A stretch of 64,000 nt of DNA from Acinetobacter lwoffii. GTDB taxonomy: Bacteria > Pseudomonadota > Gammaproteobacteria > Pseudomonadales > Moraxellaceae. Below the pieces are notes generated by a model that worked only from the letters and a program-made list of their open reading frames with translations, did not search any database and was not told the DNA's origin. This document shows positions 23,151 to 53,392 of the stretch, in pieces. The stretch is taken from assembly GCF_019048525.1 (NCBI RefSeq), contig NZ_CP077369.1:744001-808000 (forward strand). The letters are read 5' to 3'. Each line of letters begins with the position of its first letter. Positions within the stretch are counted from its first letter, which is position 1. The translations under genes were made by a program, and so were the position numbers.

Positions 23151-23248
23151 GTTCTCTCTATCACATTTATTCCACATGTTCATTGTTGAAAAAATCAACT
23201 AAAAACCCTATCTTGGTTACAGTTTAAAACTCCTGAGAATATACAAAA

Positions 23249-24688: not shown

Positions 24689-24769
24689 GCTCTTTGCAAA
24701 ATATAATTTCGGTTGAGGCAGTCATTGATCCTAGACATTCTCCAACAATGATTAAGTTCTGAAAAATAA

Positions 24770-24795
24770 AAAAACCAGCCATTGCTGGTTTTTTT
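24770..24795 (+). terminator. Rho-independent terminator after wzi
   Basis: GC-containing stem AACCAGC / GCTGGTT with a 4-5-nt loop followed by seven Ts, 80 bp downstream of the wzi stop. It ends the wza-wzb-wzc-wzi transcription unit. Confidence 0.85.
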
Positions 24796-24921
24796 ATATC
24801 TTTAAACTTCAACACAACTGCGGTGTCCGCTTGCTAAAAAACCACCCATTCTGCAAGATTTCTCAAAATTTTCTGCTAAGATGGAATGAACCTCAACGAT
24901 AACATTAGATTGGAATAATAC

Positions 24922-36746: not shown

Positions 36747-39700
36747 TTAAACAGAATTTAAACTTTTTTTCACTTTAAACCACTGTGCATATAGGGCAGG
36801 CAGGAAAAACAGGGTCAATAATGTCGCCACAATCAAACCACCCATAATCGCCACCGCCATTGGCCCGAAGAAAATACTGCGGGACAAGGGAATCATGGCC
36901 AGCACTGCAGCCAGTGCGGTCAATACGATCGGACGACAACGGCGTACTGTGGCATTGATGATGGCATCCCACTGCGACTCTCCGGCCTGAATATCCTGCT
37001 CGATCTGGTCAATCAGAATCAGCGAGTTGCGCATGATCATTCCAGATAAGGCAATCGTTCCGAGCATCGCAACAAAACCGAAAGGTTTATTGAAAATTAA
37101 CAGGAATAACACCACTCCGATAATGCCTAAAGGTGCGGTCAGGAACACAATAAAGGCCCGTGAGATGCTCTTGAGCTGAATCATCAGCAGGGTCATGACG
37201 ACTGCGAGGAATAAAGGCATGCCGGCATTCACCGAGTTCTGTCCACGAGCCGATTCTTCAACTGTACCCCCCACTTGCAGCAGATAGCCATTCGGCAGCT
37301 CTGCCCGGATTTTTTCCAGTGGCTCTTTGAGTTCATTGACCACAGTAGCGGGCTGCAACTTGCTACGAATATCGGCACGCACGGTAATGGTCGGCAAGCG
37401 ATTACGATGCCAGATCAGACCTTCCTCAAAGCTGTATTCTATTTTGGCCAGCTGCGCCAAAGGTACCGATGTACCGGTTGCGGTCGGAACAGCCAGACTG
37501 GCTAAAGATGCTACCTCCACCCGTTCAGCCTGAGCACCACGCAAACGGATCTCGATCAGTTCACGTTTTTCACGATACTGATCAATGCCTGCTCCCAAAA
37601 TCGAGCTATTCAGTACATTGGCCAGTTCACTGCTGCTCACCCCAAGCTGACGGGCACGATCCTGATCAATCTGTAATTTGATGACTTTGCTCGGCTCGCC
37701 CCAGTCCAGATGCACATTGGTGGTATTTGGATTTTCTCCCACGGTGGCTGCAACTTTCTGCGCCCATTCACGAACTAATCCTAAGTCTTCACCCGATACC
37801 CGGAACTGCAGTGGATAGCCCACAGGTGGGCCATTTTCCAACAAGGACACCCGGGTACGCACTTCCGGCAATAACTCTCGAATCTGGTCACTTAAGGATT
37901 TGCGGATTTCATTCCGGTCTTCCAGCGAGGAAGCCAATACCACAAACTGGGCAAAGCTGGTTTGCGGCAACTGCTGATCGAGCGGTAAATAGAAACGCGG
38001 CGATCCCATCCCGACATAGGCCACATAGTTATCAATCCCCTCTTGTTTTGATAAAAAGGCTTCGACTTTTTTTACTGCAGCTTCAGTGGCTTTCAGTGAT
38101 GCACCTTCTTCAAGTTTGAGATCCACCAGAATTTCAGCCCGGTTCGAGGGCGGAAAAAACTGCTGCGGCACCAATTTAAACATTAAAATAGACAGGATAA
38201 AAATTCCGACCGTGGCAGCAATGACAGTTTTACGATAGGTCACACAGGCATTGACCCAACGACGAAAGCTCTGATAAAACCGGGTTTGATAAGGGTCATA
38301 ATGTTCACCGGCATGATGCACAAGCGGCTGAGGTTCTGGCTGTTTGCGCAGACGTGCCCAAAGCCGCTGATACCACGGCGCTTTTTGAATTAAATCTTTG
38401 TTGAAATCCGGTAGAAGTTTATCGCCTAAATATGGCACAAACAGTACCGCGGCAATCCAGGACACCAGTAATGCAATGGTCACTACCTGGAAAATCGAAC
38501 GGGTATATTCCCCGGTACTCGAGGCTGCAGTGGCAATCGGCAGGAAACCGGCAGCGGTAATCAGAGTCCCGGTCAGCATCGGAAAAGCGGTGGTGCGCCA
38601 GGCATGCCCGGCCGCCTGTAAACGGCTATAACCCTGCTCCATTTTAATCGCCATCATTTCAATGGCGATAATGGCATCATCGACTAGCAGACCGAGGGCC
38701 AGAATCAGCGCCCCCAAAGAAATTTTATGCAGTCCGACATCAAACAGCTGCATACCGGCAAAGGTCATGGCCAGCACTAGCGGAATGGAAAATGCCACCA
38801 CCAGACCAGTCCGGAAACCGAGCGAGAAAAAACTGACCAGCAATACGATAATCACCGCTTCTGCCAGCACTTTCATAAATTCGTTAATACTGCGTTTGAC
38901 TGCCACCGGCTGGTCCGAGACTTTTTGCAGCTCCATGCCAAGTGGCAGGGCTTTTTGCAGGCGGGCGAATTCCTGTTCTAGATTTTTACCCAAGGCAATG
39001 ATGTCCCCACCCTTGCGCATCGATACAGCAATACCAATGCCGTTTTCGCCCATAAAGCGCATCCGGGGCTGCGCCGGATCACTAAAGCCACGATAGACTT
39101 CTGCGACATCCCCCAGCTGAATGGTTTTGCCATTGACCAGCAGCGGCATCTGTCTTAACTCTTCAACACTGTTTAATGCACCACTGACCCGCACCTGAAT
39201 CCGGTCTGAACTGGTTTCAAAAAAACCGGACTGGGTGGTGGCATTTTGCTGCTGCAGGGCTTGCTGAATCGCCATGACTGGAACGCCCAGCTGAATGGCC
39301 TTGGTATTGGAAATCTCAATCCAGATTTTCTGGTCTTGCAGGCCAATCAGCTCAACTTTGGCAACATCTTTGACCCGTTGCAATTGCAGCTGTAAGCGGT
39401 CGGCGTATTCCTTGAGGGTCGCATAGTCAAAATCTTTACCCTTGAGCACATAAATATTGCCAAAGGTATCGCCGAATTCATCATTAAAGAACGGACCTTG
39501 TACCCCTTGTGGCAATTCATACCGAATATCGCCCACCTTCTTGCGCACGTTATACCAGACATCCGCGACATCTTTCGAAGCCAGAGAATCCTTGGCAACA
39601 AAAGTCACCATGGATTCACCCGGACGCGAATAGGCCATGATGCGGTCATACTGTCCCGTGGTCATCAGTTCCTTTTCAATCCGGTCAGTGACCTGTAGGG

Positions 39701-39884
39701 ATACTTCTTTGGCACTCGCACCCGGCCAATAGGTCTGGATCACCATGACTTTAAAGGTAAAAGGCGGATCTTCACTTTGTGACAGTTTGGAATAAGAGAC
39801 GATGCCGATCAGACCCAGCAGGATCATGAAATACAGCACCAGACCTTTATTTTTTAAGGCCCATTCCGACAGGTTAAAGTTCAT
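36747..39884 (-). CDS. RND efflux pump, inner-membrane permease
   Basis: A 1045-residue AcrB-superfamily proton-driven exporter with 12 membrane helices and two large periplasmic loops. The TM4 proton-relay segment is LILALGLLVDDAIIAIEMM (adjacent Asp pair), and the C-terminal half repeats the layout (ALSGMIMRNSLILIDQIEQ). It is 2 bp downstream of its adaptor and has no outer-membrane channel gene next to it, so it likely borrows a TolC-type partner encoded elsewhere. The sequence resembles the TriC/MexK-like branch more than AdeB or AdeJ. The substrate range is unknown. Expression is probably altered by the ISAba1 insertion upstream and the broken tetR. Confidence 0.95.
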   Translation of the reverse strand: MNFNLSEWALKNKGLVLYFMILLGLIGIVSYSKLSQSEDPPFTFKVMVIQTYWPGASAKEVSLQVTDRIEKELMTTGQYDRIMAYSRPGESMVTFVAKDSLASKDVADVWYNVRKKVGDIRYELPQGVQGPFFNDEFGDTFGNIYVLKGKDFDYATLKEYADRLQLQLQRVKDVAKVELIGLQDQKIWIEISNTKAIQLGVPVMAIQQALQQQNATTQSGFFETSSDRIQVRVSGALNSVEELRQMPLLVNGKTIQLGDVAEVYRGFSDPAQPRMRFMGENGIGIAVSMRKGGDIIALGKNLEQEFARLQKALPLGMELQKVSDQPVAVKRSINEFMKVLAEAVIIVLLVSFFSLGFRTGLVVAFSIPLVLAMTFAGMQLFDVGLHKISLGALILALGLLVDDAIIAIEMMAIKMEQGYSRLQAAGHAWRTTAFPMLTGTLITAAGFLPIATAASSTGEYTRSIFQVVTIALLVSWIAAVLFVPYLGDKLLPDFNKDLIQKAPWYQRLWARLRKQPEPQPLVHHAGEHYDPYQTRFYQSFRRWVNACVTYRKTVIAATVGIFILSILMFKLVPQQFFPPSNRAEILVDLKLEEGASLKATEAAVKKVEAFLSKQEGIDNYVAYVGMGSPRFYLPLDQQLPQTSFAQFVVLASSLEDRNEIRKSLSDQIRELLPEVRTRVSLLENGPPVGYPLQFRVSGEDLGLVREWAQKVAATVGENPNTTNVHLDWGEPSKVIKLQIDQDRARQLGVSSSELANVLNSSILGAGIDQYREKRELIEIRLRGAQAERVEVASLASLAVPTATGTSVPLAQLAKIEYSFEEGLIWHRNRLPTITVRADIRSKLQPATVVNELKEPLEKIRAELPNGYLLQVGGTVEESARGQNSVNAGMPLFLAVVMTLLMIQLKSISRAFIVFLTAPLGIIGVVLFLLIFNKPFGFVAMLGTIALSGMIMRNSLILIDQIEQDIQAGESQWDAIINATVRRCRPIVLTALAAVLAMIPLSRSIFFGPMAVAIMGGLIVATLLTLFFLPALYAQWFKVKKSLNSV

Positions 39885-39886
39885 GC

Positions 39887-40990
39887 TTAACTCCCTGCCT
39901 GAATGGTCACATGACGGTTTTCACGATCAATCGGATTGATTTTTTGCTGGTTACGCAGCAGATGTACGCCACCAATCACCACATAGTCTTCCGGCTTGAG
40001 CCCACTGAGTACAGGAACACTGTCCCGGCCATAGGCACCTAGCTGGACCGGGACTTTACGCAAGGTATGATCCGGCTGGACCACCATTACATAAGCCTGC
40101 TGATCGGTGGCCGATACACTGGACAGCGGGATACTGAGCATATTGTCCCGGCTGTGCTGAAAATATACCCGGGCACTTTGTCCCAGCTGAATCTGCGCAT
40201 TGCCCTCACGCAGTGAGACTTTAACCCGGAAGGTACGCGACTGGTCTGCTGCCGGTGCAATCTCGCGAACAAAGGCAGCAAATTTTTCTTCAGGTCTGGA
40301 CCATAAAGTGACCGTAGCTGCCTGTCCGACCTTAATCTCTGAAATGGCCTGTTCCGGCACTCCAATCACCACTTCACGTTCACCGGAAATCGCCAGCTCA
40401 TAGGCCGCCTGCCCCGCGGCCACCACCTGACCTGTTTCGATATTACGTGCAGTGATCACGCCATTTTTAGTGGCAAGTAGCTGGTTATAAGCGGTCTGGT
40501 TTTTGGCCGTATCATAATTGGCTTGTGCCTGTTTCAGGCTTGACTGTGCGGCTTTGTATTGATTATCGATGGCATCATATTGCGAGCGACTCACAGCATT
40601 GACAGGTAATAGCTGCTTGAAGCGCTGTAGTTCATCTTGAGCAATTTTGCTGGCAGACTGTGCATTTTCCAGCTGGGCACGTGCTGCATCCAGCTGTAGC
40701 TGTGCATCTTTTACATCCAGTGTCGCTAGTACCTGCCCGACTTTGACCTGATCCCCGACATCGACGAAACGCTGGGTTACCTGTCCCGCCACCCGAAAGG
40801 CCAGCTCGGTTTGCTGACGCGCCTGCACATCTCCGGCATAGCTTTTCAGTTCATGCTGTGAAGCGGCCGGTCTACTCACCATGACGAAGGGAACTTCCTG
40901 TTCTGCTGCGGCAGTATCTTTGTTGCACCCGCTTAAGGTCACACTGCAAAGCATCATCATGCCAGCCAATACGCTGTAAATCCTGCTCAT
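39887..40990 (-). CDS. RND efflux periplasmic adaptor, lipoprotein
   Basis: A 367-residue membrane-fusion protein. Its signal peptide ends at the lipobox VTLSGC (Cys about residue 22), so the mature protein is lipid-anchored. It has the lipoyl/barrel-sandwich half motif YAGDVQARQQTELAFRVAGQ, a long coiled-coil hairpin (about residues 95-165) and the second half NGVITARNIETGQVVAAGQ, followed by beta-barrel domains. It is the first gene of the efflux operon, 139 bp from the end of ISAba1. Confidence 0.95.
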   Translation of the reverse strand: MSRIYSVLAGMMMLCSVTLSGCNKDTAAAEQEVPFVMVSRPAASQHELKSYAGDVQARQQTELAFRVAGQVTQRFVDVGDQVKVGQVLATLDVKDAQLQLDAARAQLENAQSASKIAQDELQRFKQLLPVNAVSRSQYDAIDNQYKAAQSSLKQAQANYDTAKNQTAYNQLLATKNGVITARNIETGQVVAAGQAAYELAISGEREVVIGVPEQAISEIKVGQAATVTLWSRPEEKFAAFVREIAPAADQSRTFRVKVSLREGNAQIQLGQSARVYFQHSRDNMLSIPLSSVSATDQQAYVMVVQPDHTLRKVPVQLGAYGRDSVPVLSGLKPEDYVVIGGVHLLRNQQKINPIDRENRHVTIQAGS

Positions 40991-41120
40991 CTTATTCGCT
41001 CTTATCTGATCATCTTTTTTAGGGCAAACTATGCTGATATATTGAATTGCTTATCTTTTAGCCAATATGCCAACCGGTACACTAATTACAACTGAGTCAT
41101 CAAAGCAATGACCGTGTTAA

Positions 41121-41129
41121 CTGTTTTGA
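41121..41129. repeat. Left copy of ISAba1 target-site duplication
   Basis: CTGTTTTGA directly abuts the left end of the IS and recurs exactly at 42310-42318 after the right end. A 9-bp duplication is what ISAba1 generates, so this was a simple transposition without later rearrangement. Confidence 0.97.
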
Positions 41130-41161
41130 CTCTGTACACGACAAAAATAGATAACTCATTG

Positions 41162-41189
41162 AAATAATGTCATAATAATTGTTTTCTAA
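41162..41189 (-). promoter_or_regulatory. ISAba1 outward promoter facing the efflux operon
   Basis: On the minus strand, TTAGAA (41184-41189) is followed after 16 bp by TTATTT (41162-41167). These are the -35 and -10 hexamers published for the ISAba1 outward promoter. Transcription would leave the IS at 41130 and reach the adaptor ATG about 165 nt downstream. The elements are seen directly. Activity in this strain is inferred. Confidence 0.9.
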
Positions 41190-41200
41190 CGACGAATACT

Positions 41201-42291
41201 ATGACACATCTCAATGAGTTATATCTTATCTTAAACAAATATCTAAAATGGAACAAGTCACATTTAAAGTGCTTTGCGCTCATCATGCTTGTGATTATTT
41301 TAAAGCAAACATGTAATCTTTCTTCTGCATCTAAAGCCTTGCCCATCAAGTGCTTACCACAATCATTTTATCGACGTATGCAGCGCTTCTTTGCAGGTCA
41401 GTATTTTGATTATCGTCAAATTTCTCAGTTGATTTTCAATATATTTTCATTCGACAAAGTCCAACTGACTTTAGATAGAACCAATTGGAAATGGGGAAAA
41501 CGAAATATTAATATCCTGATGCTTGCGATCGTTTATCGTGGAATAGCGATACCTATCGTTTGGACATTACTTAATAAACGGGGAAATTCAGATACGAAAG
41601 AGCGTATTGCTTTAATTCAACGCTTCATATCCATTTTTGGTAAAGACTGTATTGTGAATGTGTTCGCAGACAGAGAGTTTATCGGTGAGCAGTGGTTTAC
41701 ATGGTTAATTGAACAAGAGATCAACTTCTGCATTCGTGTTAAAAAAACTTTATTGTCACCAATCATTTAGGAAAGAATCATAAAATTAGTGATTTATTTC
41801 GCCATCTTCAAGTTGGTCAAATTGAATGTCGTAAACGACGGATTTTGGTTGGTCGGGTGAAACTATATATAAGTGCACTACAGTTAGAAAATGGAGAGCT
41901 TTTACTCGTCGTTTCTCCTCAGTTTAATGCCAATGCTATTGAGGATTATGCATTACGCTGGGAAATTGAAACCTTATTCAGTTGTCTCAAAGGACGCGGG
42001 TTTAATCTTGAAAATACGCGCTTGACAGACCCTAGACGAGTGAAAAAATTGATTGCGGTGTTAGCTATAAGCTTCTGTTGGTGTTACTTAACGGGTGAAT
42101 GGCAACATGATCAAAAAAAAGTGATAAAAATAAAGAAGCATGGACGACTCTCAATGAGTTTATTTCGCTATGGTTTAGACTATGTTCAAATGGCGATTCA
42201 GCGTTTAATTGGTTTTGGGAAAAAAGAAGAGTTTAAGGAAATTTTGGCAATTTTAAGAAGGCAGAACCCTGATAGGATAAGGGTTCTGTGA
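41201..42291 (+). CDS. ISAba1 transposase, two frames joined by -1 frameshift
   Basis: An IS4-family DDE transposase. The first frame (189 codons, to 41770) and second frame (to 42291) form one protein if the ribosome slips -1 on the run of seven A's at 41741-41747. The joined sequence then reads on as NFIVTNHLGKN. The first D is in LTLDRTNWKWG, the second in VNVFADREFIGE, and the glutamate is in the WEIETLFSCLKGRGF (YREK-like) segment of frame two. ISAba1 is known to be encoded in two overlapping frames, so I read this as normal for the element and not as a mutation. Confidence 0.9.
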
Positions 42292-42309
42292 AATTTGTCG
42301 TGTACAGAG

Positions 42310-42318
42310 CTGTTTTGA
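42310..42318. repeat. Right copy of ISAba1 target-site duplication
   Basis: CTGTTTTGA, identical to 41121-41129. It ends 9 bp before the GTG start of tetR, so ISAba1 separates tetR from its own promoter while leaving its ribosome-binding region. Confidence 0.97.
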
Positions 42319-42327
42319 GAAGAAATT

Positions 42328-42600
42328 GTGCAAATACCTGTAGGACGACCCAAAGATCTGAAAAAGCGCCAACGGATTCTCAGTGTGGCCAAAGCCTTAT
42401 TTTTAGAACATGGCTATCATACTTCTAGCATGAACCAGATTGCGCGTGAGGCCGGCGTCACCAAGCTGACGGTGTATAACCATTTTCAGGACAAGGCGAC
42501 TCTGTTTACGTGTGCGATCGAAGATACCTGTGAAGCCATTCTGCATGAATACCCGCAGATGCTACGACCTGAAATTGATTTTTATCATGAGTTTTATTAA
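42328..42600 (+). pseudogene. TetR-family regulator, 5' fragment (interrupted gene)
   Basis: About 90 codons encode a TetR N-terminal DNA-binding domain: GRPKDLKKRQRILSVAKALF, then the helix-turn-helix (SSMNQIAREAGVTKLTVYNH), then FQDKATLF. It ends abruptly where the IS605-type element begins. Its C-terminal half resumes at 44899. It is divergent from the RND operon, the usual place for its local repressor. The fragment lacks the ligand-binding and dimerisation domain and so should not repress. The start is a GTG. Confidence 0.93.
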
Positions 42601-42682
42601 ATGGAGCGTAAAACTCTGTTCTTCAGGTCAGAGATATAAGCGACACGACATGAAATGTCGTTTATTTTTTAAGAATCAATAA

Positions 42683-42687
42683 TTTTA
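42683..42687. repeat. Left target duplication of IS701-like element
   Basis: TTTTA, repeated at 43790-43794 on the other side of the insertion. Together with the inverted repeats this fixes the boundaries of the nested IS. Confidence 0.82.
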
Positions 42688-43789
42688 TAGGACTTACGCA
42701 TTGAGGGATTTAAAAAAGTCTCAAACTACTTTATAACGTATCTGTGATCAGACGAACTAAACATGCTTCTACAGCAACTTGTACATTACCCATTTATATG
42801 GGCTTTCTCATGACAGAACCAAACTCTATTAGCTGCACACAACTTGCCGAGACTTATAATATCTCGCATGACAGTGTAAATCGCTTTTTGGAGCGTGAAG
42901 ACTACACAGCTCGCGATCTATATCAAGAAGCAATTCAACACATTGATAATAATAAACTTATAGTCAGTATTGATGATACTGTTTTAGATAAGCCATATAG
43001 TCAACATATGGACTTAGTTAGCTATTTTTGGTCAGGTAAACACCACCGATCCGTCAAGGGTATTAATCTCATTACCTTGTATGCGACAGATCAACATGGC
43101 AAAAATATTCCAATTAATTTTCGAATTTATGATAAGTCAGAAAGTAAAACCAAGAATGATTACTTTATGGAGATGTTAAGTGAAGTACTCGATTGGGGTG
43201 CAAAGATTCAATTCATTACAGGTGATAGTTGGTATTCATCGACTGAAAATCTAAAAACCATAAGAAAACATGGTATTCGATTTATGTTTGGTGTCGACAG
43301 TAACCGTAAGGTTTCCCCTGAAAAAGGACAATGGTTTCAACTCCGTTTATTGCCGAATTTTCATCAGGGTCAAGTGGTCTGGCTCAAAGATGTTGGCTTT
43401 GTACAATTATTTAAGACTCAGTTAAAAGAACAGCAGAGATTTTATATTGTGCATCAAGATGAAGATGATTTATTGTCCTTTGATGGTTTTTATGAATTAC
43501 ATTCAAGTCATTGGAAAATAGAACAATATCATCGAGTAATTAAACAGGTTTGTCATATTGAAAAGTTTCAAGTAAGACGATCCAAGCTGATTTTGAATCA
43601 TATTTTCTCAGCCTTGATGGCCTATGTTGAGATACAAAAGAACCAGTTTGAGCGGATCTTTGAAAATGTATATCGTTGGCAGAAAAAATTATTTAGACCA
43701 ATTATCAAGAACTTTATTGATGAATTTATTCTCGATAAGAATCATCTGCTGCCACAGAAAATCTATAAATAATAGTGCGTAAGTCCTAT
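42688..43789 (+). mobile_element. IS701-like insertion sequence, ISAba11-like
   Basis: 1102 bp, ending in inverted repeats TAGGACTTACGCA / TGCGTAAGTCCTA and flanked by the 5-bp repeat TTTTA. Size, terminal sequence and transposase type resemble ISAba11, an Acinetobacter element known from lpx gene disruptions. The assignment to that exact element is from memory and not from a search. It is nested inside the IS605-type element, between its left hairpin and tnpB. Confidence 0.85.
42744..43772 (+). CDS. IS701-like transposase
   Basis: A DDE transposase of up to 342 residues. Recognisable parts are an N-terminal helix-turn-helix-like NISHDSVNRFLERE, SIDDTVLDKP (first Asp), HHRSVKGINLITLY, FITGDSWYSS (second Asp) and WKIEQYHRVIKQVCHIEKFQ (Glu). 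The frame begins at a GTG at 42744. The first in-frame ATG that starts conserved sequence (MTEPNS) is at 42810. An ATG at 42763 lies in another frame, so a 1-nt change near the N-terminus cannot be excluded. Confidence 0.85.
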   Translation: MIRRTKHASTATCTLPIYMGFLMTEPNSISCTQLAETYNISHDSVNRFLEREDYTARDLYQEAIQHIDNNKLIVSIDDTVLDKPYSQHMDLVSYFWSGKHHRSVKGINLITLYATDQHGKNIPINFRIYDKSESKTKNDYFMEMLSEVLDWGAKIQFITGDSWYSSTENLKTIRKHGIRFMFGVDSNRKVSPEKGQWFQLRLLPNFHQGQVVWLKDVGFVQLFKTQLKEQQRFYIVHQDEDDLLSFDGFYELHSSHWKIEQYHRVIKQVCHIEKFQVRRSKLILNHIFSALMAYVEIQKNQFERIFENVYRWQKKLFRPIIKNFIDEFILDKNHLLPQKIYK

Positions 43790-43794
43790 TTTAA
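43790..43794. repeat. Right target duplication of IS701-like element
   Basis: TTTTA, matching 42683-42687. Confidence 0.82.
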
Positions 43795-43818
43795 TTCAAC
43801 ATGAGCTAATATAAGCCC

Positions 43819-44889
43819 ATGAAAACACTTAAATTACGAATAAAAGACAAACACTGCAAGGTGCTAGACCAATTAGCATCTGAGGTGAACTTTGTTTGGA
43901 ATTATGTGAATGATTTAAGTTTCGCACACCTAAAAAGAACAGGTGACTTTTTCTCAGCATTCGATATGGCTAAATACACAAAAGGGACTTCAAAATTGTG
44001 TGGTCTGCATAGCCAAACGGTGGATGCAATCAGGGAAGAATATACTGCTAAAAGAAAACAGTTTAGAAAAGCAAAATTAAAATGGCGTGTAAGTAACAAG
44101 AAGTCAGCAAGAAGATCGCTTGGTTGGATACCATTCAAAAAATCAGGACTGAAATATGCTGAGGGATGGGTTGAGTATGGAGAAACCAAATTTGGCTTAT
44201 GGGATAGCTACGGTTTAAGCAAATATGCCGTTAGAACAGGTTCATTTGTTGAGGACAGTCGTGGGCGTTGGTATGTGTGCCTAGTCGTGGATTCACCTAA
44301 GTTAGACAAACCAACTGCAACTAAAGCCATTGGCATTGATCTAGGCTTAAAAGATATAGCCACCTGTTCTGATGGTACTGTGATTTCAAATCCAAAGTTC
44401 TATCGAAAATATGAACAAAAACTAGGTATTACTCAACGAGCGAAGAATAAAAAGCGTGTTCGTGCATTACACGCCAAGATTGCAAATTGTCGTAAAGATC
44501 ATTTGCACAAAGCAAGCACCATGCTTGTAAAAGAAAATGCACTGATTATTGTTGGCAACCTGAGTGCTAAAAAACTTGTGAAAACTAAAATGGCTAAATC
44601 GGTTTTAGATACAGGATTTTCAGCACTCAAAACAATGCTCAAGTATAAATGCGAGAACGCAAGTGTATTGTTTGAGGAAGTCAACGAAAGTTTCACAACC
44701 CAAATCTGCTCGTGCTGTGGTGAGATCACCGCAAGCAGTCCGAAAGGTAGAGCAGATTTGCGAATAAGAGTATGGGAATGTGAAAACTGCTCAAGTGTCC
44801 TGGATAGGGATTTGAACAGTGCTAAGAACATACTTGCGCTTGGGCATAAGCGTCTAGCAGTAGGAATCACCCTCCTTTCAGGTGGGTGA
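43819..44889 (+). CDS. tnpB: TnpB, RNA-guided nuclease of IS605-type element
   Basis: A 356-residue TnpB/OrfB. The RuvC-like core is visible: Asp in AIGIDLGLKDIA (about residue 176), Glu in VLFEEVNESFTTQ (about 283) and Asp in SVLDRDLNSAKNIL (about 332). The zinc finger is ICSCCGE...CENCSS. All three catalytic residues are present, so it may be active. The stop codon lies 9 bp before the element end, so the guide RNA scaffold must overlap the 3' coding region. The guide would be read from the flank, i.e. the 3' half of tetR. The gene itself appears intact despite the nested insertion upstream. Confidence 0.93.
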   Translation: MKTLKLRIKDKHCKVLDQLASEVNFVWNYVNDLSFAHLKRTGDFFSAFDMAKYTKGTSKLCGLHSQTVDAIREEYTAKRKQFRKAKLKWRVSNKKSARRSLGWIPFKKSGLKYAEGWVEYGETKFGLWDSYGLSKYAVRTGSFVEDSRGRWYVCLVVDSPKLDKPTATKAIGIDLGLKDIATCSDGTVISNPKFYRKYEQKLGITQRAKNKKRVRALHAKIANCRKDHLHKASTMLVKENALIIVGNLSAKKLVKTKMAKSVLDTGFSALKTMLKYKCENASVLFEEVNESFTTQICSCCGEITASSPKGRADLRIRVWECENCSSVLDRDLNSAKNILALGHKRLAVGITLLSGG

Positions 44890-44898
44890 GGATGTCAA

Positions 44899-45144
44899 CA
44901 GGCCTCGCATAGCAAACTGGAAGCAGTCTGGAATGATTTCTTTGCTCTGGCTCAACAGTACCGTTTTATTAAGGTTGATCTTCCAGAAAAACAGACCGAG
45001 CTGATTGTGTCCCTGCTGACCGGAACCCGGCATCAGAAAATCCTGCTGGGCCTCAGCCCGCCTCCATCGCATACCGCACAACAGCAGATCATTGCCCAGG
45101 CGATTGAACTGTTTATGCTGAAATATGGTATTACCAACCCATAA
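44899..45144 (+). pseudogene. TetR-family regulator, 3' fragment
   Basis: 82 codons continuing the interrupted repressor (SKLEAVWNDFFALAQQYRF, then a helical C-terminus ending KYGITNP) to a TAA at 45142-45144. No start codon or ribosome-binding site belongs to it. Joined to the 5' fragment it gives about 172 residues, shorter than the usual 190-210 for TetR proteins, so some central codons may have been lost along with the insertion. Confidence 0.85.
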
Positions 45145-45291
45145 GCTCATACCAACGTCACCTACCTGCGCTATTGTGATGCTGCCGACTTGTGAAAAAA
45201 GCAGCTAAAAATCTGCAACTTTTGTCTGTAAAGGACTTGGATTGTCCGACAGTCGCGGTATAGTCAAACTAAGCATTTGAGGGAATATAAA

Positions 45292-47976
45292 ATGATTCAA
45301 CAAATTGATGCACCACTACGCGAAGACGTACGCTTACTGGGTAATTTGCTCGGGGAAACCTTAAAATTACATGCCGGGCAGGATTTGTTTAATCAGATCG
45401 AGCAAATCCGTGCCCTGTCCAAAGGCGCTCGCGATGGACAGGTCGAAGCAGAAAAACAACTGGAACAACTGTTTTTGAGCCTGGAAGATGCCGAAATCCT
45501 GCCGCTGACCCGTGCCTTTACCCACTTTTTAAACTTTGCCAATATTGCCGAACAATATCATGTGGTACGTCGTCGCCGTCAGAGCGAGTTTGATCACACT
45601 GCAGAATCACCCAATCCTCTGGTGCCTTTATTTGAAAAATTTAAACAGCAGGAGATTTCTGCCGATACGCTGTATCAGGAAATCTGTGAACTGAAAATTG
45701 AACTGGTCCTGACCGCGCATCCCACAGAAGTCAGCCGCCGTACCCTGATTCAAAAATATGATGGCATCAATAATGCCCTGTCCAAATTCGACCAGCAGAA
45801 ACTCACTCCACGTGAACGTCTGGCAGTTCTGGCCGATCTGAAACAGCTGATCAGCTCCGCCTGGCAAACCGATGAAATCCGTCAGCATCGCCCGACTCCG
45901 ATTGACGAAGCCAAATGGGGCTTTACCACCATTGAGCAGACCCTGTGGAATGCGGTCCCGAAATTTATCCGCGAACTGAATGGCATGGTGCAAGCGCAAT
46001 GTGGCCAGAACCTGCCCTTAGATGTCGCACCAGTACGTTTTGCCTCCTGGATGGGTGGTGACCGCGATGGCAACCCGAATGTCACTCACACCGTCACTCA
46101 GGAAGTACTGTGGCTGTCGCGCTGGAAAGCAGCCGACCTTTATGTACGTGATATTGAAAACCTGCGCTGGGAACTGTCTATTCAGCAATGTAGTCCGGAA
46201 ATTTCCGAAGCTTTGGGCCAGCCCCATCCTGAACCCTATCGTGAATATTTACGTGACACCCGTACCCGCCTGAAAGCGACGCGGCACTGGCTGGCAGAAA
46301 AATTAAAAGGCAATGATGCCGATGACAGTCTGGTGATTAAAAGTAAAGACGAACTTTTACAACCGCTCCTGACATGCTACCGCTCGCTAATGGACTGCAA
46401 TCTGGCCGAAATTGCCAATGGCAGCCTGCTGGACTTTATTTACCGGGTCAACAGTTTTGGGATCGAACTACTAAAACTGGATATCCGTCAGGAATCCGGC
46501 CGTCACCGTCAGGCAATTTCAGCCATTACTGAATATTTGGGACTGGGGAATTTTGAAACATGGACCGAACAGGCCCGTCAAAACTTTTTACTGCAGGAAT
46601 TACAAAGCAAGCGTCCATTACTGCCGAAACATCTGAATGAACCGGCCGGCAGCCTGATTGAACATCCGGATGTACAGGAAGTCTTTGCCACCATGCGCAC
46701 ACTGGCCGAACAGCCGAGCGAGTCTCTGGGTGCCTATATTATTTCCATGGCAGAATATCCAAGTGATGTGCTGGCGGTACTGCTTTTACAAAAAGAAGCC
46801 GGCATCGAGCAGGCGTTACGGGTGGTTCCTCTATTTGAAACCTTAAAAGATCTGGATGGTGCAGCCGCAACCATGTCGACCCTGTTCAATATGCACTGGT
46901 ACAAACAGCATATTCAGGGCAAGCATGAGGTCATGATTGGCTATTCGGATTCTGCCAAGGATGCCGGCTTTATGTCGGCCAACTGGGCACAGTATCGTGC
47001 CCAGGAAGAACTGACCGCAGTTGCCCAGCAACATGGCGTGCAATTGACCCTGTTTCATGGTCGTGGGGGTTCAATTAGCCGTGGCGGTGCGCCAACCCAG
47101 CAGGCACTCTTCTCTCAACCGCCAGGGTCGATTTCAGGTGCGATCCGGGTGACTGAACAGGGCGAAATGATCCGTTTCAAATTCGGTCTGGAAGAAATCG
47201 CCCTGCAGAATCTGGAAATTTATACCGCTGCAACACTGGAAGCGACCTTACTCCCGCCACCTGAACCCAAACAGGAATGGCGCGACTTGATGCATCAAAT
47301 GACCGAGCTATCGGTGCAGGTCTATCGCCAGACCGTCCGGGAAAATCCGCATTTTGTGAAATACCTGCGTACCGTCACGCCAGAACTTGAACTGCAAATG
47401 CTGCCACTGGGTTCACGGCCGGCGAAACGTAAAGTCAGTGGTGGGATTGAATCACTGCGAGCGATTCCCTGGGTCTTTGCCTGGACCCAGATTCGCCTGA
47501 TGTTACCGGCCTGGCTCGGTACCGGTGCTGCATTAAATGCGGTACTGGATCAGGGACAACGCACGGTACTGGATGAGATGCTGGCAGAGTGGCCGTATTT
47601 TCAGACCCTGATTGATATGCTGGAAATGGTACTGTCCAAAGCCGATGCCAATGTGGCGCTATATTATGAATCGCATTTGACTCAGGATGAAGATCTTAAA
47701 GTTCTGGGAACAGAACTGCGTCAGCGTTTGCAGGATGCTGTACAAACCCTGTTGAGCTTAAAAGGCGAATCGAAACTCCTGAGCAGTAACGGTGTACTGG
47801 ATCAGTCGATGAAAGTACGTAAACCCTATTTGTTACCGCTGCACTTACTGCAAGCTGAACTGATGAAACGTCGCCGTTTATATCTGGAACAGCAGCAGGC
47901 TGAAAATACCCCGGTCGATCATGCCTTAATGGTCAGCATTGCCGGCATTGCAGCCGGTTTACGTAATACCGGCTGA
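45292..47976 (+). CDS. ppc: Phosphoenolpyruvate carboxylase
   Basis: Anaplerotic enzyme making oxaloacetate from PEP and bicarbonate. From the ATG at 45292, with GAGGGA just upstream, it has 894 residues against 883 in E. coli. Signatures: VLTAHPTEVSRRTL (catalytic His), SWMGGDRDGNPNVT, GYSDSAKDAGFMSANW, FHGRGGSISRGGAPTQ (mobile loop) and the C-terminal GLRNTG. A longer frame from a TTG at 45277 is unlikely. Confidence 0.98.
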   Translation: MIQQIDAPLREDVRLLGNLLGETLKLHAGQDLFNQIEQIRALSKGARDGQVEAEKQLEQLFLSLEDAEILPLTRAFTHFLNFANIAEQYHVVRRRRQSEFDHTAESPNPLVPLFEKFKQQEISADTLYQEICELKIELVLTAHPTEVSRRTLIQKYDGINNALSKFDQQKLTPRERLAVLADLKQLISSAWQTDEIRQHRPTPIDEAKWGFTTIEQTLWNAVPKFIRELNGMVQAQCGQNLPLDVAPVRFASWMGGDRDGNPNVTHTVTQEVLWLSRWKAADLYVRDIENLRWELSIQQCSPEISEALGQPHPEPYREYLRDTRTRLKATRHWLAEKLKGNDADDSLVIKSKDELLQPLLTCYRSLMDCNLAEIANGSLLDFIYRVNSFGIELLKLDIRQESGRHRQAISAITEYLGLGNFETWTEQARQNFLLQELQSKRPLLPKHLNEPAGSLIEHPDVQEVFATMRTLAEQPSESLGAYIISMAEYPSDVLAVLLLQKEAGIEQALRVVPLFETLKDLDGAAATMSTLFNMHWYKQHIQGKHEVMIGYSDSAKDAGFMSANWAQYRAQEELTAVAQQHGVQLTLFHGRGGSISRGGAPTQQALFSQPPGSISGAIRVTEQGEMIRFKFGLEEIALQNLEIYTAATLEATLLPPPEPKQEWRDLMHQMTELSVQVYRQTVRENPHFVKYLRTVTPELELQMLPLGSRPAKRKVSGGIESLRAIPWVFAWTQIRLMLPAWLGTGAALNAVLDQGQRTVLDEMLAEWPYFQTLIDMLEMVLSKADANVALYYESHLTQDEDLKVLGTELRQRLQDAVQTLLSLKGESKLLSSNGVLDQSMKVRKPYLLPLHLLQAELMKRRRLYLEQQQAENTPVDHALMVSIAGIAAGLRNTG

Positions 47977-47994
47977 TTTTTCGCCCTCGCATTC

Positions 47995-48023
47995 AAAGCA
48001 CATCCTGGTGATGTGCTTTTTTT
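47995..48023 (+). terminator. Terminator of ppc
   Basis: Stem AAGCACATC / GATGTGCTT with a CTGGT loop and seven following Ts, about 20 bp after the stop codon. Confidence 0.88.
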
Positions 48024-48246
48024 GTACATGAATTGGCCAAAACCACTCACTGCATCGTATTTTTTATAACTAAAATAACAAATCTTTATGAGTGAATTTT
48101 AAGCATAGCTATATGATTAATCCACTGATTTAACGCTACTTTTATATTAAAAATATTTACCAATTGATAAAAAATAAATAAAAGTCAATGAATTAACTTG
48201 AACAAAAAGTTGAAAGGAGTGATTAAAACTTCCAAAAAACCGGAGT

Positions 48247-49578
48247 ATGATGTGCACAATTTATCTTATGAGTGCTCATTTTATGTCCAGTTGGTTTCCC
48301 AAATGGCGCCCTTATCAGGGCAGTATCGATGCACGACCAGTAGGTACCGCAGAGTATTTGCCACCCGCACAAACGGTAGTTTTGGGTGTACAACATGCCT
48401 TTGCCATGTTTGGCGCAACCGTACTGGCACCTTTTTTAATGGGCTTTGATCCAAACCTGGCAATTTTAATGTCAGGGATCTGTACCATCCTGTTCTTTTT
48501 AATCACCGGTGGCCGCGTTCCGAGTTATTTAGGTTCGAGCTTTGCCTTTATTGGGGTGGTAATTGCAGCGACCGGTTATGCCGGCGGCGGTGGACTGAAT
48601 CCGAATATTGGCGTTGCAGCCGGCGGGATTATTGCCTGTGGTATTTTCTATGCGCTGATGGGTTTTCTGGTCATGGCGACCGGTACGCGCTGGATTGAAA
48701 AGCTGATGCCACCGGTGGTGACTGGTGCCGTGGTAATGATCATTGGTCTGAACCTGGCGCCAGTGACGGTGAAAAGCGTCATGGGCAACACCTTTAATAT
48801 GTGGATGTCCTTGGTCACTGTGCTGTGTATGGGTTCGATTGCAGTGTTTACCAAAGGCTTGCTACAGCGTCTGCTGTTATTGGTCGGTCTGTTATTGGCT
48901 TATCTGATCTATTTCGTGCTCAGTAATGTCATGGGTTATGGCACTGCGATCAACTTCCAGCCGATTCAGCAAGCGGCCTGGTTCGGTTTACCAACCTTCC
49001 ACGCGCCAACCTTTGAATTAAACGCCATGCTGATCATTGCACCGGTTGCCTTGATTCTGGTGGCAGAAAATCTGGGCCATATTAAAGCGGTCAGCGCGAT
49101 GACCGGAGAAAATCTGGATCCGCATATTGGTAAAGCCTTTGTTGCCGATGGTGTTGCGACGACCCTGGCTGGTGGTGTCGGTGCGCCGGGGATGACCACC
49201 TATGGTGAAAACATTGGGGTCATGGCCGTAACCCGTGTGTATTCAACCATCATCTTTGCCATCGCCGGTGTCTTTGCCATCTTCCTCGGTTTATCGCCAA
49301 AGTTTGGTGCAGTGATTCATACCATTCCAACGGCGATTCTGACCGGTGCTTCGATTGTGGTGTTTGGTCTGATTACCATTGCCGGTGCCAAAATCTGGAT
49401 TGAAAACAAGGTCGATTTCTCGCAGAACAAGAACCTGATGGTGGCTGCGGTGACCATTATTTTAGGGACGGGTGATTTTGCCCTGACTTTCGGCAGCTTC
49501 AATCTGGGTGGTATTGGTACCGCAACTTTTGCAGCCCTGTTCCTCAACTGGTTCTTCAGCCTGGTCGATAAAAAATAA
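48247..49578 (+). CDS. Nucleobase:cation symporter-2 permease (uracil/xanthine type)
   Basis: A polytopic inner-membrane transporter of the UraA/RutG/XanQ family with about 14 membrane segments. Evidence: LGVQHAFAMFGATVLAPFL (first helix and signature), GSSFAFIGVVIAATGY, LILVAENLGHIKAVSAMTGEN with the conserved Glu of the substrate site, and GGVGAPGMTTYGENIGVMAVTRV. These two motifs favour a uracil/pyrimidine permease. The start is uncertain: ATGs at 48247, 48250, 48268 and 48283 are all in frame, and the GGAG at 48242 best suits the second. Confidence 0.9.
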   Translation: MMCTIYLMSAHFMSSWFPKWRPYQGSIDARPVGTAEYLPPAQTVVLGVQHAFAMFGATVLAPFLMGFDPNLAILMSGICTILFFLITGGRVPSYLGSSFAFIGVVIAATGYAGGGGLNPNIGVAAGGIIACGIFYALMGFLVMATGTRWIEKLMPPVVTGAVVMIIGLNLAPVTVKSVMGNTFNMWMSLVTVLCMGSIAVFTKGLLQRLLLLVGLLLAYLIYFVLSNVMGYGTAINFQPIQQAAWFGLPTFHAPTFELNAMLIIAPVALILVAENLGHIKAVSAMTGENLDPHIGKAFVADGVATTLAGGVGAPGMTTYGENIGVMAVTRVYSTIIFAIAGVFAIFLGLSPKFGAVIHTIPTAILTGASIVVFGLITIAGAKIWIENKVDFSQNKNLMVAAVTIILGTGDFALTFGSFNLGGIGTATFAALFLNWFFSLVDKK

Positions 49579-50327: not shown

Positions 50328-50615
50328 TTAAGGACGAAACTCTTTCAGTTCACGCTGGATAAAATACTGGAACATTTCACGGTATAGATGTTCAATAAAC
50401 TCCTGATCGATACCCTGCTTTTGCGCCAGAGCTCTGACATTTTCTACAATCTGTTCCATACGTTCCGGTGACTGCAAATCGGTTTCGGTTTTTTTGAAAC
50501 GGGTGGTTTGATCAACATAAAATTGACGCGCAGCGATCAGCTCAACTAAAGCTGTATCAATGGCATCGATCTGTTGACGTGCATGTTCTAGTGATTCAGC
50601 TTTGATCTTTTCCAT
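50328..50615 (-). CDS. Chorismate mutase, AroQ class
   Basis: A 95-residue all-helical chorismate mutase: ARQQIDAIDTALVELIAARQ with conserved DxxL and R, VDQTTRFKK, QSPERMEQIVENV and IDQEFIEHLYREMFQYFI. It converts chorismate to prephenate (or is a homologous isochorismate-pyruvate lyase; similarly small PchB-type enzymes share the fold). No signal peptide. It overlaps the end of the upstream gene by 20 bp, so translation is coupled. Confidence 0.87.
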   Translation of the reverse strand: MEKIKAESLEHARQQIDAIDTALVELIAARQFYVDQTTRFKKTETDLQSPERMEQIVENVRALAQKQGIDQEFIEHLYREMFQYFIQRELKEFRP

Positions 50616-51918
50616 GTTTTTTCAGTTCACTTTCAGTTTGATTATTACTCTTATACTTTTCTTCTAACACATTACTGAAAATACTTTCAATCATCCAGAC
50701 CCGATATAAGCTATTAAATGTATAACTTTGATCATCTATACGTAGTTCCAGTACCGGGAAATTCGGCTGAGACTTCATTTCACAGAGCATATCATTGTCC
50801 TGTAGCTTGGCCAGAATATCGTCCTGGGTCAGATCTACAATATTTAACTGTTGCTGCAAACGTTTGAAATGAGGTGCATAAGACAGGTCTTCACCACGGG
50901 TCCAGACGGCCTGCAAGATCTGGTACATCGCCTCAATCCGCTGCTCCTCGGGACAGCTATAAAATAATTGTGCCATTGGCGCAATCGCCTGCTCGGTCGG
51001 TCGGCAGAACGGGGTAAATTCTACTTCAGTCCGTTTGGATAAACGTGTGGCCAGACTCCAGTCAAACTCATCCCGGCCGCGATAGGACAAGGGATAGACA
51101 TTCAGCTGGATATTGTAATAATCCGCCAGTTCTTCCTTGATATAAGCCAGCAGCAGCCAGGAGATCGGGTCTTCCAGCGCGATATACAAGTCCAGTTCCG
51201 GATCCATCGACTGGATCTCGTTCAGCTCTTCAGCATCACTGATCAGATGCTCACGCCATTCAATGTGATCGATCATAAAAATCGGATTACCGGTCAGCAG
51301 TTTTTGCTGCTCCAGACGCCGGGTCAGACGCAACAGGTCATCGACCGCCTGATACTGGCGACCGCCTAAATTAAAATAGCTGGCCAGAATCGGAGTCTGG
51401 TCAAAAATACGTTCGGGAAAGTCCTGTGGCTGATGATGACGACTGGCCATGGCATAAAGGGTTCGTAATTTTCCGGTCTGTTTTTGCCACAACATATGAA
51501 ACACATCTTCCAGCAAATACAGAAAATCCTGCCCGCGCAGCGGGGTATGCCGTAAAATCAGTTCCGCCTGTTGCAAGGCTTCAGCGCTGGGCAATTCTGG
51601 CGTGTCATGAAAACTAAAACGATGCTGTTTCGACAGAATCTTGGCATCATTTAGGGTGTAGTGCTGCCATTCATCAAAAGACATCTGATTTGGGGGGGCT
51701 GCATGCGAACTAGAAATAATTACTTTCAGCGGCTTGAGCTGCGGACTTAAAATTTCTTCGAGCTGGGGCAGCTGCTGTACCGCCAGATAGCTGTACACAT
51801 CATCCAGTCTTAAATGGATACTCAGCCCATCTTGAATAGATAACACCGTTTGACGGATTGGTTTCTGGTAAAACCAACTCGATCGGATTGGATCAAACCA
51901 ACGGCGTAACAGGGACAT
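50596..51918 (-). CDS. DsbA/HCCA-isomerase-like protein, probably two-domain
   Basis: 440 residues from the ATG at 51916-51918. The second half contains LDLYIALEDPISWLLLAYIK, and later YPLSYRGRDEFDWSLATRLS and VEFTPFCRPTEQA. This layout recalls the 2-hydroxychromene-2-carboxylate isomerase/DsbA thioredoxin-fold group. The first half has a partly similar outline, so a duplicated domain is possible. No CxxC pair is present, so it is unlikely to be a disulfide oxidoreductase. The open frame continues to 52044, but that part overlaps the end of a tnpB element and was probably created by its insertion. Family identity is tentative. Confidence 0.6.
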   Translation of the reverse strand: MSLLRRWFDPIRSSWFYQKPIRQTVLSIQDGLSIHLRLDDVYSYLAVQQLPQLEEILSPQLKPLKVIISSSHAAPPNQMSFDEWQHYTLNDAKILSKQHRFSFHDTPELPSAEALQQAELILRHTPLRGQDFLYLLEDVFHMLWQKQTGKLRTLYAMASRHHQPQDFPERIFDQTPILASYFNLGGRQYQAVDDLLRLTRRLEQQKLLTGNPIFMIDHIEWREHLISDAEELNEIQSMDPELDLYIALEDPISWLLLAYIKEELADYYNIQLNVYPLSYRGRDEFDWSLATRLSKRTEVEFTPFCRPTEQAIAPMAQLFYSCPEEQRIEAMYQILQAVWTRGEDLSYAPHFKRLQQQLNIVDLTQDDILAKLQDNDMLCEMKSQPNFPVLELRIDDQSYTFNSLYRVWMIESIFSNVLEEKYKSNNQTESELKKHGKDQS

Positions 51919-52047
51919 GAGATCGGCCTCGACAAAGATGACGGTGTGCAGTTCAAAAAATTGAATCTGTACAGAATAATCTATTTTTAAGATCGCAGAG
52001 CCAAAGCCCTGCATGGTGTAAAAACTTATATCAAGTCTTGACATACT

Positions 52048-52096: not shown

Positions 52097-53392
52097 TTAG
52101 GTGACTTCCTCACGGATTTCACTTGCTTTCTGCTTCACAGGGCGATCTTTACCGCATCTTCCCTCGACAGACAAAACGGTATGTCCCACCGCTAAAATGT
52201 TACGAGAAGCGTTAATATCTGCATTCTCGCTAAAACCACAACTAACACACTCAAACTTAGCCTGAGTAGGTCTATTTTCTTTTGCAACATGACCGCATGA
52301 ACTACAAGTCTGACTTGTATATCTAGGGTCAATCTTAACGAGTAAACCACCTCGCCATTGTTGCTTATACTCCAACATATTGACAAGCATTGACCAACCT
52401 TGATCTAGGATTGATTTGTTTAAGCTTGATTTAGCTTTAACATTCTTTCCTTTTTCCTCAATTGAGCCTTTTGCTGACTTCGACATATTGGCTACTTTCA
52501 AGTCCTCAACTACGATCATTGCGTGGTTTTTGCTGAGAGTTGTCGTGACTTTGTGCAAGTAGTCATGCCGAATATTGGCTATATGGTGATGTAATTTATT
52601 AAGTTTTAAATTAAGTTTTTTCCAATTTTGGCTAAACTTGATTTTCTTTTTTAGCTTACGTTGAAGTTTAGCTAACTTTACTTGATTGGCTTTAAAACTA
52701 TTGATTGGGTCAAATACCTGACCTGTTGATGTTGTAATTAATTTCTTAATGCCAAGATCAACACCAATTGCAGATTTTGATGGATGAATTGGTTGTTCGA
52801 TTTCACGGTTAGTACAAAATGAAACATACCAAAGCCCACAAATTTTCTTAATTGTAATACTTGTGATTTTACCAACAATTTCTTGTGATTTTTTAAATCT
52901 TATCCAACCTGTTTTTTTAGGCAAAGAAACTCGATCACCAATAACCTCACAATCTGCAAATGGAAGTCTAAAAGATTGCTCACCATCTGATTTCTTCTTG
53001 AATCTTGGCATGAGTGGTCTAAGCTGAATCTCACCACCATCAGCCAATTTAAAAAAATTGGGTTTACGTGGTTTCCGCTTGTTTTGCTTTAAACGAGCTT
53101 GTTCTTTTTTGTTGTAAAACTTACCCCATGCTTGAGCAAGATCACGTATTTTTTGCTGTAAGCAAGCTGAATATGTTTGACCAAGAAAAGAAAATTCAGG
53201 TGTTTTTTTAAGGGGCACTAATTTTTTTTCAATGCTTTCGTAACGAATATATTCATCTTTAGCAAACATTTCAAATGATTTAGCGAGAATTTGATTCCAC
53301 ACAAAACGAGCAGAACCTATTGCTTGATTAAGCAATATTTCCTGTTCTTGGTTAGGCAGAAGCCTAAACTTGTAGTGTTGTGAAATCTTCAT
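52097..53392 (-). CDS. tnpB: TnpB, RNA-guided nuclease, second element
   Basis: A 431-residue TnpB with the N-terminal HTH-like YKFRLLPNQEQEILLNQAIG, the RuvC Asp in AIGVDLGIKKLIT, Glu in AMIVVEDLKVANMS and Asp in ENADINASRNIL. The zinc finger is CSSCGH...CVSCGF. The catalytic residues are intact. It is only distantly similar to the TnpB at 43.8 kb (different N-terminus and 75 residues longer), so the two belong to different element lineages. Confidence 0.93.
   Translation of the reverse strand: MKISQHYKFRLLPNQEQEILLNQAIGSARFVWNQILAKSFEMFAKDEYIRYESIEKKLVPLKKTPEFSFLGQTYSACLQQKIRDLAQAWGKFYNKKEQARLKQNKRKPRKPNFFKLADGGEIQLRPLMPRFKKKSDGEQSFRLPFADCEVIGDRVSLPKKTGWIRFKKSQEIVGKITSITIKKICGLWYVSFCTNREIEQPIHPSKSAIGVDLGIKKLITTSTGQVFDPINSFKANQVKLAKLQRKLKKKIKFSQNWKKLNLKLNKLHHHIANIRHDYLHKVTTTLSKNHAMIVVEDLKVANMSKSAKGSIEEKGKNVKAKSSLNKSILDQGWSMLVNMLEYKQQWRGGLLVKIDPRYTSQTCSSCGHVAKENRPTQAKFECVSCGFSENADINASRNILAVGHTVLSVEGRCGKDRPVKQKASEIREEVT

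What the first reader, a model, noticed from the sequence alone, without database searches (positions are those of the whole stretch)
39887..45144. RND efflux locus hit by three separate insertions that remove its repressor
Seen directly: ISAba1 lies between the divergent adaptor gene and tetR; an IS605-type element splits tetR; an IS701-like IS is nested in that element. Each is bounded by its own ends, and two have clean target duplications. Known: local TetR repressors usually control such pumps. Inferred: repeated hits at one regulator suggest selection for pump over-expression, for example under drug or solvent stress.
Basis: partly seen in the sequence, partly recalled or inferred. Interest (0 to 1): 0.75.

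Follow-up and report, generated by a model that had tools for sequence, protein, structure and literature searches.

The report
Mobile DNA rewires Acinetobacter pump control
In this Acinetobacter chromosome, jumping DNA has broken the gene for a drug-pump repressor and placed an outward-facing promoter in front of the pump; this is a known kind of event at a less-studied pump, and its effect on the pump was not measured.

Summary
ISAba1 (41130-42309, 9-bp duplication) lies between pump genes and tetR. A TnpB-carrying IS605-type element (42598-44898) splits tetR. An ISAba11-like IS701 element (42688-43788, 5-bp duplication) is nested in that element, so two of the three insertions hit the regulator region. 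The pump is MexJK-like, the Acinetobacter arpAB/acrAB system with repressor arpR/acrR. Of 122 genus relatives with the pump, 121 have the repressor full length and one nearly so. The truncated 90-residue repressor is listed on 20 contigs of a protein database; two other truncated repressors there end in ISAba11-family residues. Pump over-expression is likely but not shown. Papers conflict on whether losing this repressor matters (1.1-fold in A. baumannii AB5075, raised in A. nosocomialis), and such clustering is expected somewhere by chance in this IS-rich genome. DNA beside the TnpB element matches intact repressor genes of sibling species, so it could in principle cut them. A new member of a known kind.

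The parts
36747..39884 (-). RND permease gene, 1045 aa, closest solved relative MexK
   Evidence: ACR_tran; MexK 1532.7 bits over residues 1-1041, second a pump of the Tri type (6vej; that name is recalled) 952.3 bits
39887..40990 (-). Periplasmic adaptor gene, 367 aa, MexJ-like; arpA/acrA counterpart
   Evidence: RND_mfp above cut-off; MexJ best PDB hit; two bases lie between its stop and the permease start
41074..41089 (.). Conserved block 84-99 bp upstream of the adaptor start, where A. nosocomialis has its AcrR-binding motif (-87)
   Evidence: Intergenic alignment, window sequence; core GGTACACTAATTA exact in 12 of 13 close relatives; published motif found in 1 of 149 genus genomes, upstream of that genome's adaptor gene
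41121..41129 (.). ISAba1 target duplication, left copy (right copy 42310-42318)
41130..42309 (+). ISAba1, IS4 family, the only copy found in this genome
41162..41189 (-). ISAba1 outward promoter TTAGAA-N16-TTATTT, pointing at the adaptor gene (start codon at 40990)
   Evidence: consensus from PMC9161033 and, with N17, PMC9330008
42328..42600 (+). tetR 5' piece: truncated repressor of 90 aa, DNA-binding part only; the stop codon is the first three bases of the TnpB element
   Evidence: TetR_N
42598..44898 (+). IS605-type element with tnpB, no tnpA found, carrying the nested IS701-like element
42688..43788 (+). ISAba11-like IS701 element, duplication TTTTA
43819..44889 (+). tnpB, 356 aa, canonical RuvC-II Glu replaced by Gly, alternative Glu six residues before the first CxxC
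   Evidence: NF040570; alignment to TnpB structures; motif as in PMC10711439
44899..45144 (+). tetR 3' piece (C-terminal domain remnant), starting inside the second copy of a 15-bp repeat; 111 bp missing before it
   Evidence: TetR_C_7, 23.2 bits against cut-off 22, for 44917-45144
44899..44918 (+). 20 bases beside the element's right end: presumed TnpB guide segment
   Evidence: Placed behind TTTAT it matches intact tetR in 10 of 149 genus genomes, 6 exactly and 4 with one mismatch, and nothing in the own genome

Best explanation
This is an arpAB/acrAB (MexJK-like) pump locus of an Acinetobacter of the lwoffii group whose control has been rewired by mobile DNA. Shown: ISAba1 inserted 18 bp before the tetR start codon and 139 bp before the adaptor start codon, with its outward promoter motif directed at the pump and the operator-like block left on the pump side; a TnpB element ends the tetR reading frame after 90 codons; 111 bp of tetR are gone; an ISAba11-like element sits in the TnpB element. 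Inferred: the pump is transcribed from the ISAba1 promoter, no longer restrained by its local repressor, and so is made at a higher, less inducible level. The order of the ISAba1 and TnpB events is unknown; once either had silenced tetR the other could be neutral. Whether drug or solvent selection kept the allele is not known.
For: Promoter motif with the published spacing and the right orientation. Precedent in A. baumannii AB5075: adeI::ISAba1 38-fold adeJ, adeN::ISAba13 5-fold (PMC8585491, passages); ISAba1 upstream of adeABC 25-fold in a reporter (PMC9161033 abstract). AcrR binds and represses acrAB in A. nosocomialis (PMC6090078); its published motif falls upstream of the adaptor homologue in G004. 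Both pump genes are open. Full-length tetR in 121 of 122 genus relatives and in 17 of 17 named loci, which may overlap them. The same truncated repressor is listed on 20 contigs, the longest 1,033,496 bases, shorter than the 3,226,399-base own chromosome. Two other truncated repressors end in ISAba11-family residues.
Against: Delta-arpR in A. baumannii AB5075 changed arpA only 1.1-fold (PMC5387308), so loss of the repressor alone may do little. No transcript, MIC or isolate data here. Close pairs of IS matches occur elsewhere in this genome. The region is an allele diverged from all relatives compared, so the insertions may have arrived by recombination and not been selected here. None of 122 other genus genomes shows a clear disruption. 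The 20 contigs need not be independent isolates.
Confidence: 0.6

Rival explanations
1. Neutral decay: in an IS-rich genome a dispensable regulator was hit by chance, and after the first hit further insertions and the 111-bp loss were free.
For: 83 transposase/TnpB places on the chromosome, 10 distances under 2 kb between successive ones (two of them in this locus), 1.6 pairs within 780 bp expected somewhere by chance; delta-arpR had little effect on arpAB in AB5075; the third element is nested and so not a hit on tetR.
Against: tetR is kept full length in 121 of 122 genus relatives; ISAba1 points its promoter at the pump (about one chance in two); two ISAba11-family truncations in other alleles.
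Confidence: 0.25
2. Imported package: the diverged tract from about 40.1 to 45.2 kb came by homologous recombination from an unsampled lineage, bringing the already disrupted regulator.
For: 300-bp windows: 38,901-40,100 are 95.3-99.0% identical to G146, G059 and G022 (92.0-98.3% to A. pecorum); 40,101-45,150 (elements left out) are 81.8-90.8% to six lwoffii-group relatives and 70.5-84.0% to A. variabilis; 45,501-47,000 are 94.7-98.7% to G146. The truncated repressor is listed on 20 contigs.
Against: Other stretches of low identity lie nearby (47,301-48,200 and 48,501-49,400), so the tract need not be linked to the insertions; no donor found; recombination could have come before the insertions. 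Compatible with the best explanation.
Confidence: 0.3
3. The gain is loss of the repressor as such, not pump over-expression: ArpR has effects beyond arpAB.
For: Delta-arpR lowered opaque-to-translucent switching 1,916-fold with arpAB hardly changed (PMC5387308).
Against: Does not explain the outward promoter facing the pump; shown only in A. baumannii.
Confidence: 0.1

Closest known systems
adeI::ISAba1 and adeN::ISAba13 in laboratory-evolved A. baumannii AB5075 (PMC8585491, passages)
   Same: ISAba1 upstream of an RND adaptor gene with the outward promoter facing it; an IS parting a TetR-type repressor gene from its promoter
   Different: Different pump (adeIJK), single insertions in separate clones, expression measured; here both kinds of event occur in one natural allele, unmeasured
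arpAB-arpR of A. baumannii AB5075 (PMC5387308) and acrAB-acrR of A. nosocomialis (PMC6090078)
   Same: Divergent TetR gene beside an adaptor-permease gene pair; repressor gene of 624 bp in A. nosocomialis and in the A. lwoffii relative L032
   Different: Regulator intact there; adaptor 70% identical to that of A. baumannii
MexJK-MexL of Pseudomonas aeruginosa
   Same: Closest solved permease and adaptor; three truncated relatives bear the source name repressor of mexJK operon; the divergent MexL arrangement is recalled
   Different: Intact regulator; other genus
TnpB-guided retention and drive of IS200/IS605 elements (PMC11870625, a preprint, passages)
   Same: Constant right end followed by varying host sequence, TTTAT before the left end, TnpB with a possible catalytic set
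   Different: No tnpA found; nested IS between left end and tnpB; activity untested; the matching sites are repressor genes of sibling species

Membership tests
ISAba1 (IS4 family) | Sequence identity, terminal repeats, 9-bp duplication | tested here: met
   (the 9-bp length as an ISAba1 trait is recalled)
ISAba1 (IS4 family) | Outward promoter TTAGAA-N16-TTATTT at the left end | tested here: met
   against PMC9161033
ISAba11-like IS701 element | IS701 transposase, inverted ends, 5-bp duplication | tested here: met
   NF049921 390.9 bits over cut-off 250; about 94% to plasmid copies labelled ISAba11 family; the 5-bp length as a family trait is recalled
IS200/IS605-group TnpB element | TnpB with RuvC catalytic acids | tested here: inconclusive
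   Above the TnpB family cut-off; canonical Glu is Gly, alternative Glu present; nuclease activity not testable
IS200/IS605-group TnpB element | Fixed motif before the left end and constant right end | tested here: met
   TTTAT in 24 and ATTAT in 1 of 25 left ends placed by BLAST of the element end alone, out of 32 copies, 7 not placed (one search had a motif with TTAT or TCAT built into its search and is not counted); GAGGATGTCAA at the computed right end in 29 of 32, one-base variants in 2, boundary misplaced in 1. Some copies share one site (L048/L156/L157, L162/L163, L049/L175/L176)
IS200/IS605-group TnpB element | Y1 transposase tnpA in the element | tested here: not met
   The ORFs of 60 aa or more in the element are the IS701 transposase, tnpB and, on the minus strand, two inside tnpB and one across the right end; the last three have no Pfam match. 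tnpB-only elements are known (recalled)
arpAB/acrAB pump locus | Divergent TetR gene, adaptor-permease gene pair, AcrR motif upstream of adaptor | tested here: met
   the published motif as a whole is not found in the own genome, only the part next to the pump is conserved
arpAB/acrAB pump locus | Drug export | not testable with these tools
   no phenotype

The most novel reading that the evidence does not exclude
The TnpB element may lock in the loss of pump control. By inserting in tetR it would take its RNA guide from the 20 bases beside its right end; these, behind the TTTAT motif, occur exactly in the intact repressor genes of six of 148 other genus genomes (four more with one mismatch) and not in its own genome. 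If active, it would cut incoming wild-type repressor DNA from sibling species and favour the disrupted allele, so a selfish element would drive a regulatory change of a drug pump through a group of related species.
Probability: 0.12. Interest if true: 0.7.

Novelty: new member of a known kind. Interest (0 to 1): 0.42.

Why it matters
If the pump is over-produced, this is a natural allele combining promoter gain and repressor loss at the arpAB/acrAB pump, outside the three pumps (adeABC, adeFGH, adeIJK) treated in PMC9161033, and the truncated repressor on 20 contigs suggests that the allele is not confined to one assembly. It also gives a testable case in which a TnpB element could favour loss of a regulator.

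Tried and rejected
Three hits on the regulator as proof of selection: rejected as argument, because one is nested and pairs this close are expected somewhere in so IS-rich a genome. Many ISAba1 copies as the cause: rejected, one copy only was found. A wider habit of the genus: not seen in species representatives; strain-level counts could not be made. The count of truncated database repressors as a hit rate: not used, because contig edges and frameshifts cannot be told from real losses for most of the 38 listed; the 5-letter tail test proved too noisy, and an unidentified tail (P0026) matched unrelated frames. No comparison gene was run in the protein database (3 of 3 searches used). The left-end pattern had part of the motif built in, so the motif was recounted without it. 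The alignment of element right ends mixed strands and was discarded. An Rfam scan and a tRNA scan of the window gave nothing. A promoter and terminator scan found 6 promoter-like sites against 4.3 expected by chance and was not used; it does not list the ISAba1 outward promoter, which departs from its consensus. Plasmid searches found ISAba1 and the ISAba11-like element but no plasmid place covering 80% of either query.

Full report
Setting. The window is C1:744001-808000 of a genome of 3,466,826 bases in 9 contigs.

The pump. The permease (36747-39884) has MexK as its best solved match (1532.7 bits) and a second RND pump (6vej, Tri type by recall) at 952.3 bits; the adaptor matches MexJ best. 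In Acinetobacter this is the system called arpAB/arpR in A. baumannii AB5075 (PMC5387308: sections 18 and 25 and passages seen) and acrAB/acrR in A. nosocomialis (PMC6090078: sections 19 and 21 and passages seen). The link was tested: the AcrR-binding motif printed in PMC6090078 occurs, with one mismatch, in 1 of 149 genus genomes (G004), about 100 bases upstream of that genome's homologue of the window adaptor; the reversed control pattern was found in none.

ISAba1. It occupies 41130-42309 with a 9-base duplication, reads toward tetR, and is the only copy found in the genome. Its left end carries TTAGAA-N16-TTATTT on the minus strand at 41189-41162, aimed at the adaptor start codon at 40990. 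This is the published ISAba1 outward promoter (PMC9161033 passages; PMC9330008 passages give N17). The block where A. nosocomialis has its AcrR motif lies at 41074-41089, between this promoter and the pump; its core is exact in 12 of the 13 close relatives aligned. The element ends 18 bases before the tetR start codon at 42328, so tetR is cut off from whatever lay upstream.

The TnpB element and the lost piece. The element runs from 42598 to 44898. A 98% copy at C1:924 kb (L048) lacks the IS701-like insertion, which shows the nested insertion without joining anything. Of 32 copies examined, 29 end in GAGGATGTCAA at the computed boundary, two in one-base variants, and one boundary was misplaced. 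Of 25 left ends placed by BLAST of the element end alone, 24 are preceded by TTTAT and one by ATTAT; 7 could not be placed. Some copies share one site, so they are not all independent. Of the 14 relatives printed, seven have two exact copies of AGTTTTATCAGGCCT 111 bases apart in tetR, four have them with one or two changes, and in the other three no such pair was found. The left side of the window element fits copy 1 and the right side fits copy 2. So 37 codons are missing, by loss between the repeats before or after the insertion; which of the two cannot be told. The truncated protein keeps the DNA-binding domain and ends at a stop formed by the element's first bases; of the 24 other placed copies 23 begin with C instead of T there, L167 with T.

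Is it kept in relatives? Of 149 genus genomes searched, 123 (own included) hold the adaptor at E 1e-40 or better (three weaker second matches were dropped, and 26 genomes without the adaptor were not examined for tetR). Of 140 loci examined (own, 122 genus relatives, 17 named loci that may overlap them), 138 have a TetR alignable over 170 residues or more, G053 (L076) over 167 residues in a 190-residue frame, and only the own locus (L001, which stops early in the 5' piece) has none. At species level the repressor is thus conserved and the window is the exception.

Is it repeated elsewhere? The 90-residue protein was searched among 5.8 billion proteins; the length limit leaves only short forms. 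38 proteins were listed. P0001 is the window's protein exactly, with 10 member sequences and 20 contigs, the longest of 1,033,496 bases; the own chromosome has 3,226,399, so other assemblies carry it, unless the own chromosome is held there in pieces; the contigs need not be independent isolates. P0003 (27 member sequences, allele nearest to L003) and P0027 (2, allele nearest to the A. pseudolwoffii locus L033) both end in IGLTHCYL. The right end of the ISAba11-like element reads GLTHYYL, mostly behind I, in 5 of 6 fetched loci and in the window; no held copy has the C. I read the two as ISAba11-family insertions in the same gene, independent of the window's. The member counts may include other truncations, and most of the remaining 35 may be contig edges or frameshifts. 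For scale, full-length relatives form one large cluster of 475 member sequences plus smaller ones.

Chance. PF01609 and rve matches plus three TnpB copies give 83 places on the chromosome; rows on other contigs were left out, and other IS families were not sought. Ten distances between successive places are below 2 kb, two of them in this locus. Uniform insertion predicts 1.6 pairs within 780 bases somewhere, but a chance of 0.00019 for two or more in one given stretch. So the cluster alone proves nothing; the orientation of ISAba1 and the database truncations carry the argument. A. lwoffii M2a is reported with more than 250 IS elements (PMC7031236, abstract and passages).

Mosaic tract. From 38,901 to 40,100 the window is 95.3-99.0% identical to G146, G059 and G022; from 40,101 to 45,150 (elements left out) it is 81.8-90.8% identical to G146, G059, G022, A. 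pseudolwoffii, A. pecorum and L035, and 70.5-84.0% to A. variabilis; from 45,501 to 47,000 it is 94.7-98.7% to G146. The insertions thus lie in a private allele. Similar low stretches at 47,301-48,200 and 48,501-49,400 warn against reading too much into it.

What the literature says. In AB5075 an in-frame arpR deletion changed arpA only 1.1-fold while extra arpR lowered it 7.3-fold; in A. nosocomialis the acrR deletion raised acrA and acrB. So repressor loss alone may or may not matter, and the ISAba1 promoter is the stronger reason to expect over-expression. PMC8585491 (passages) is the nearest precedent. In the rows listed for five searches (25 of 134 papers, 20 of 697, 15 of 35, 10 of 135, 7 of 7; open-access library only) I saw no report of an insertion at this pump's regulator.

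TnpB. The protein lacks the canonical RuvC-II glutamate (Gly in the alignment to a solved TnpB) but has a glutamate six residues before the first CxxC, the alternative position described in PMC10711439 (passages). TTTAT plus the 20 bases beside the right end occur in 10 of 149 genus genomes (6 exact, 4 with one mismatch), each once and 525-549 bases upstream of the adaptor match, that is inside tetR, and not in the own genome. PMC11870625 (a preprint, passages) reports TnpB acting as a drive of its element in plasmids. Against activity here: no tnpA was found, and the ISAba11-like element lies between the left end and tnpB and may have cut its promoter.

Verdict. A real, well-bounded rewiring of a known pump locus by known elements; over-expression likely, selection unproven.

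Noticed in passing
52097-53392: A second, different TnpB gene (431 aa, with HTH_OrfB_IS605) on the minus strand; no match to G146, G059 or G022 was found in the 300-bp windows 52,101-53,300, so it looks like another insertion.
   Followed up: no
47301-48200 and 48501-49400: Further stretches of low identity (mostly 70-91%, up to 94% in the last piece) to the compared relatives, around the 3' part of ppc and the rutG-like permease gene; the 300 bp between them reach 94.7%.
   Followed up: no
689-24688: Genes of polysaccharide synthesis and capsule export (wza, wzc and wzi type), followed by two FKBP isomerase genes; of this only 20,001-24,800 was compared with G146 and little of it matched.
   Followed up: no
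L051 (G000:C1:2837800-2840200): Another ISAba11-like copy in the own genome with an extra adjoining 125-bp piece of the same element's end.
   Followed up: no
42598: The TnpB element here starts with T where 23 of 24 other placed copies start with C; the change makes the stop codon that ends the truncated repressor.
   Followed up: partly
50596-52044: A 482-residue open frame without any Pfam match.
   Followed up: no
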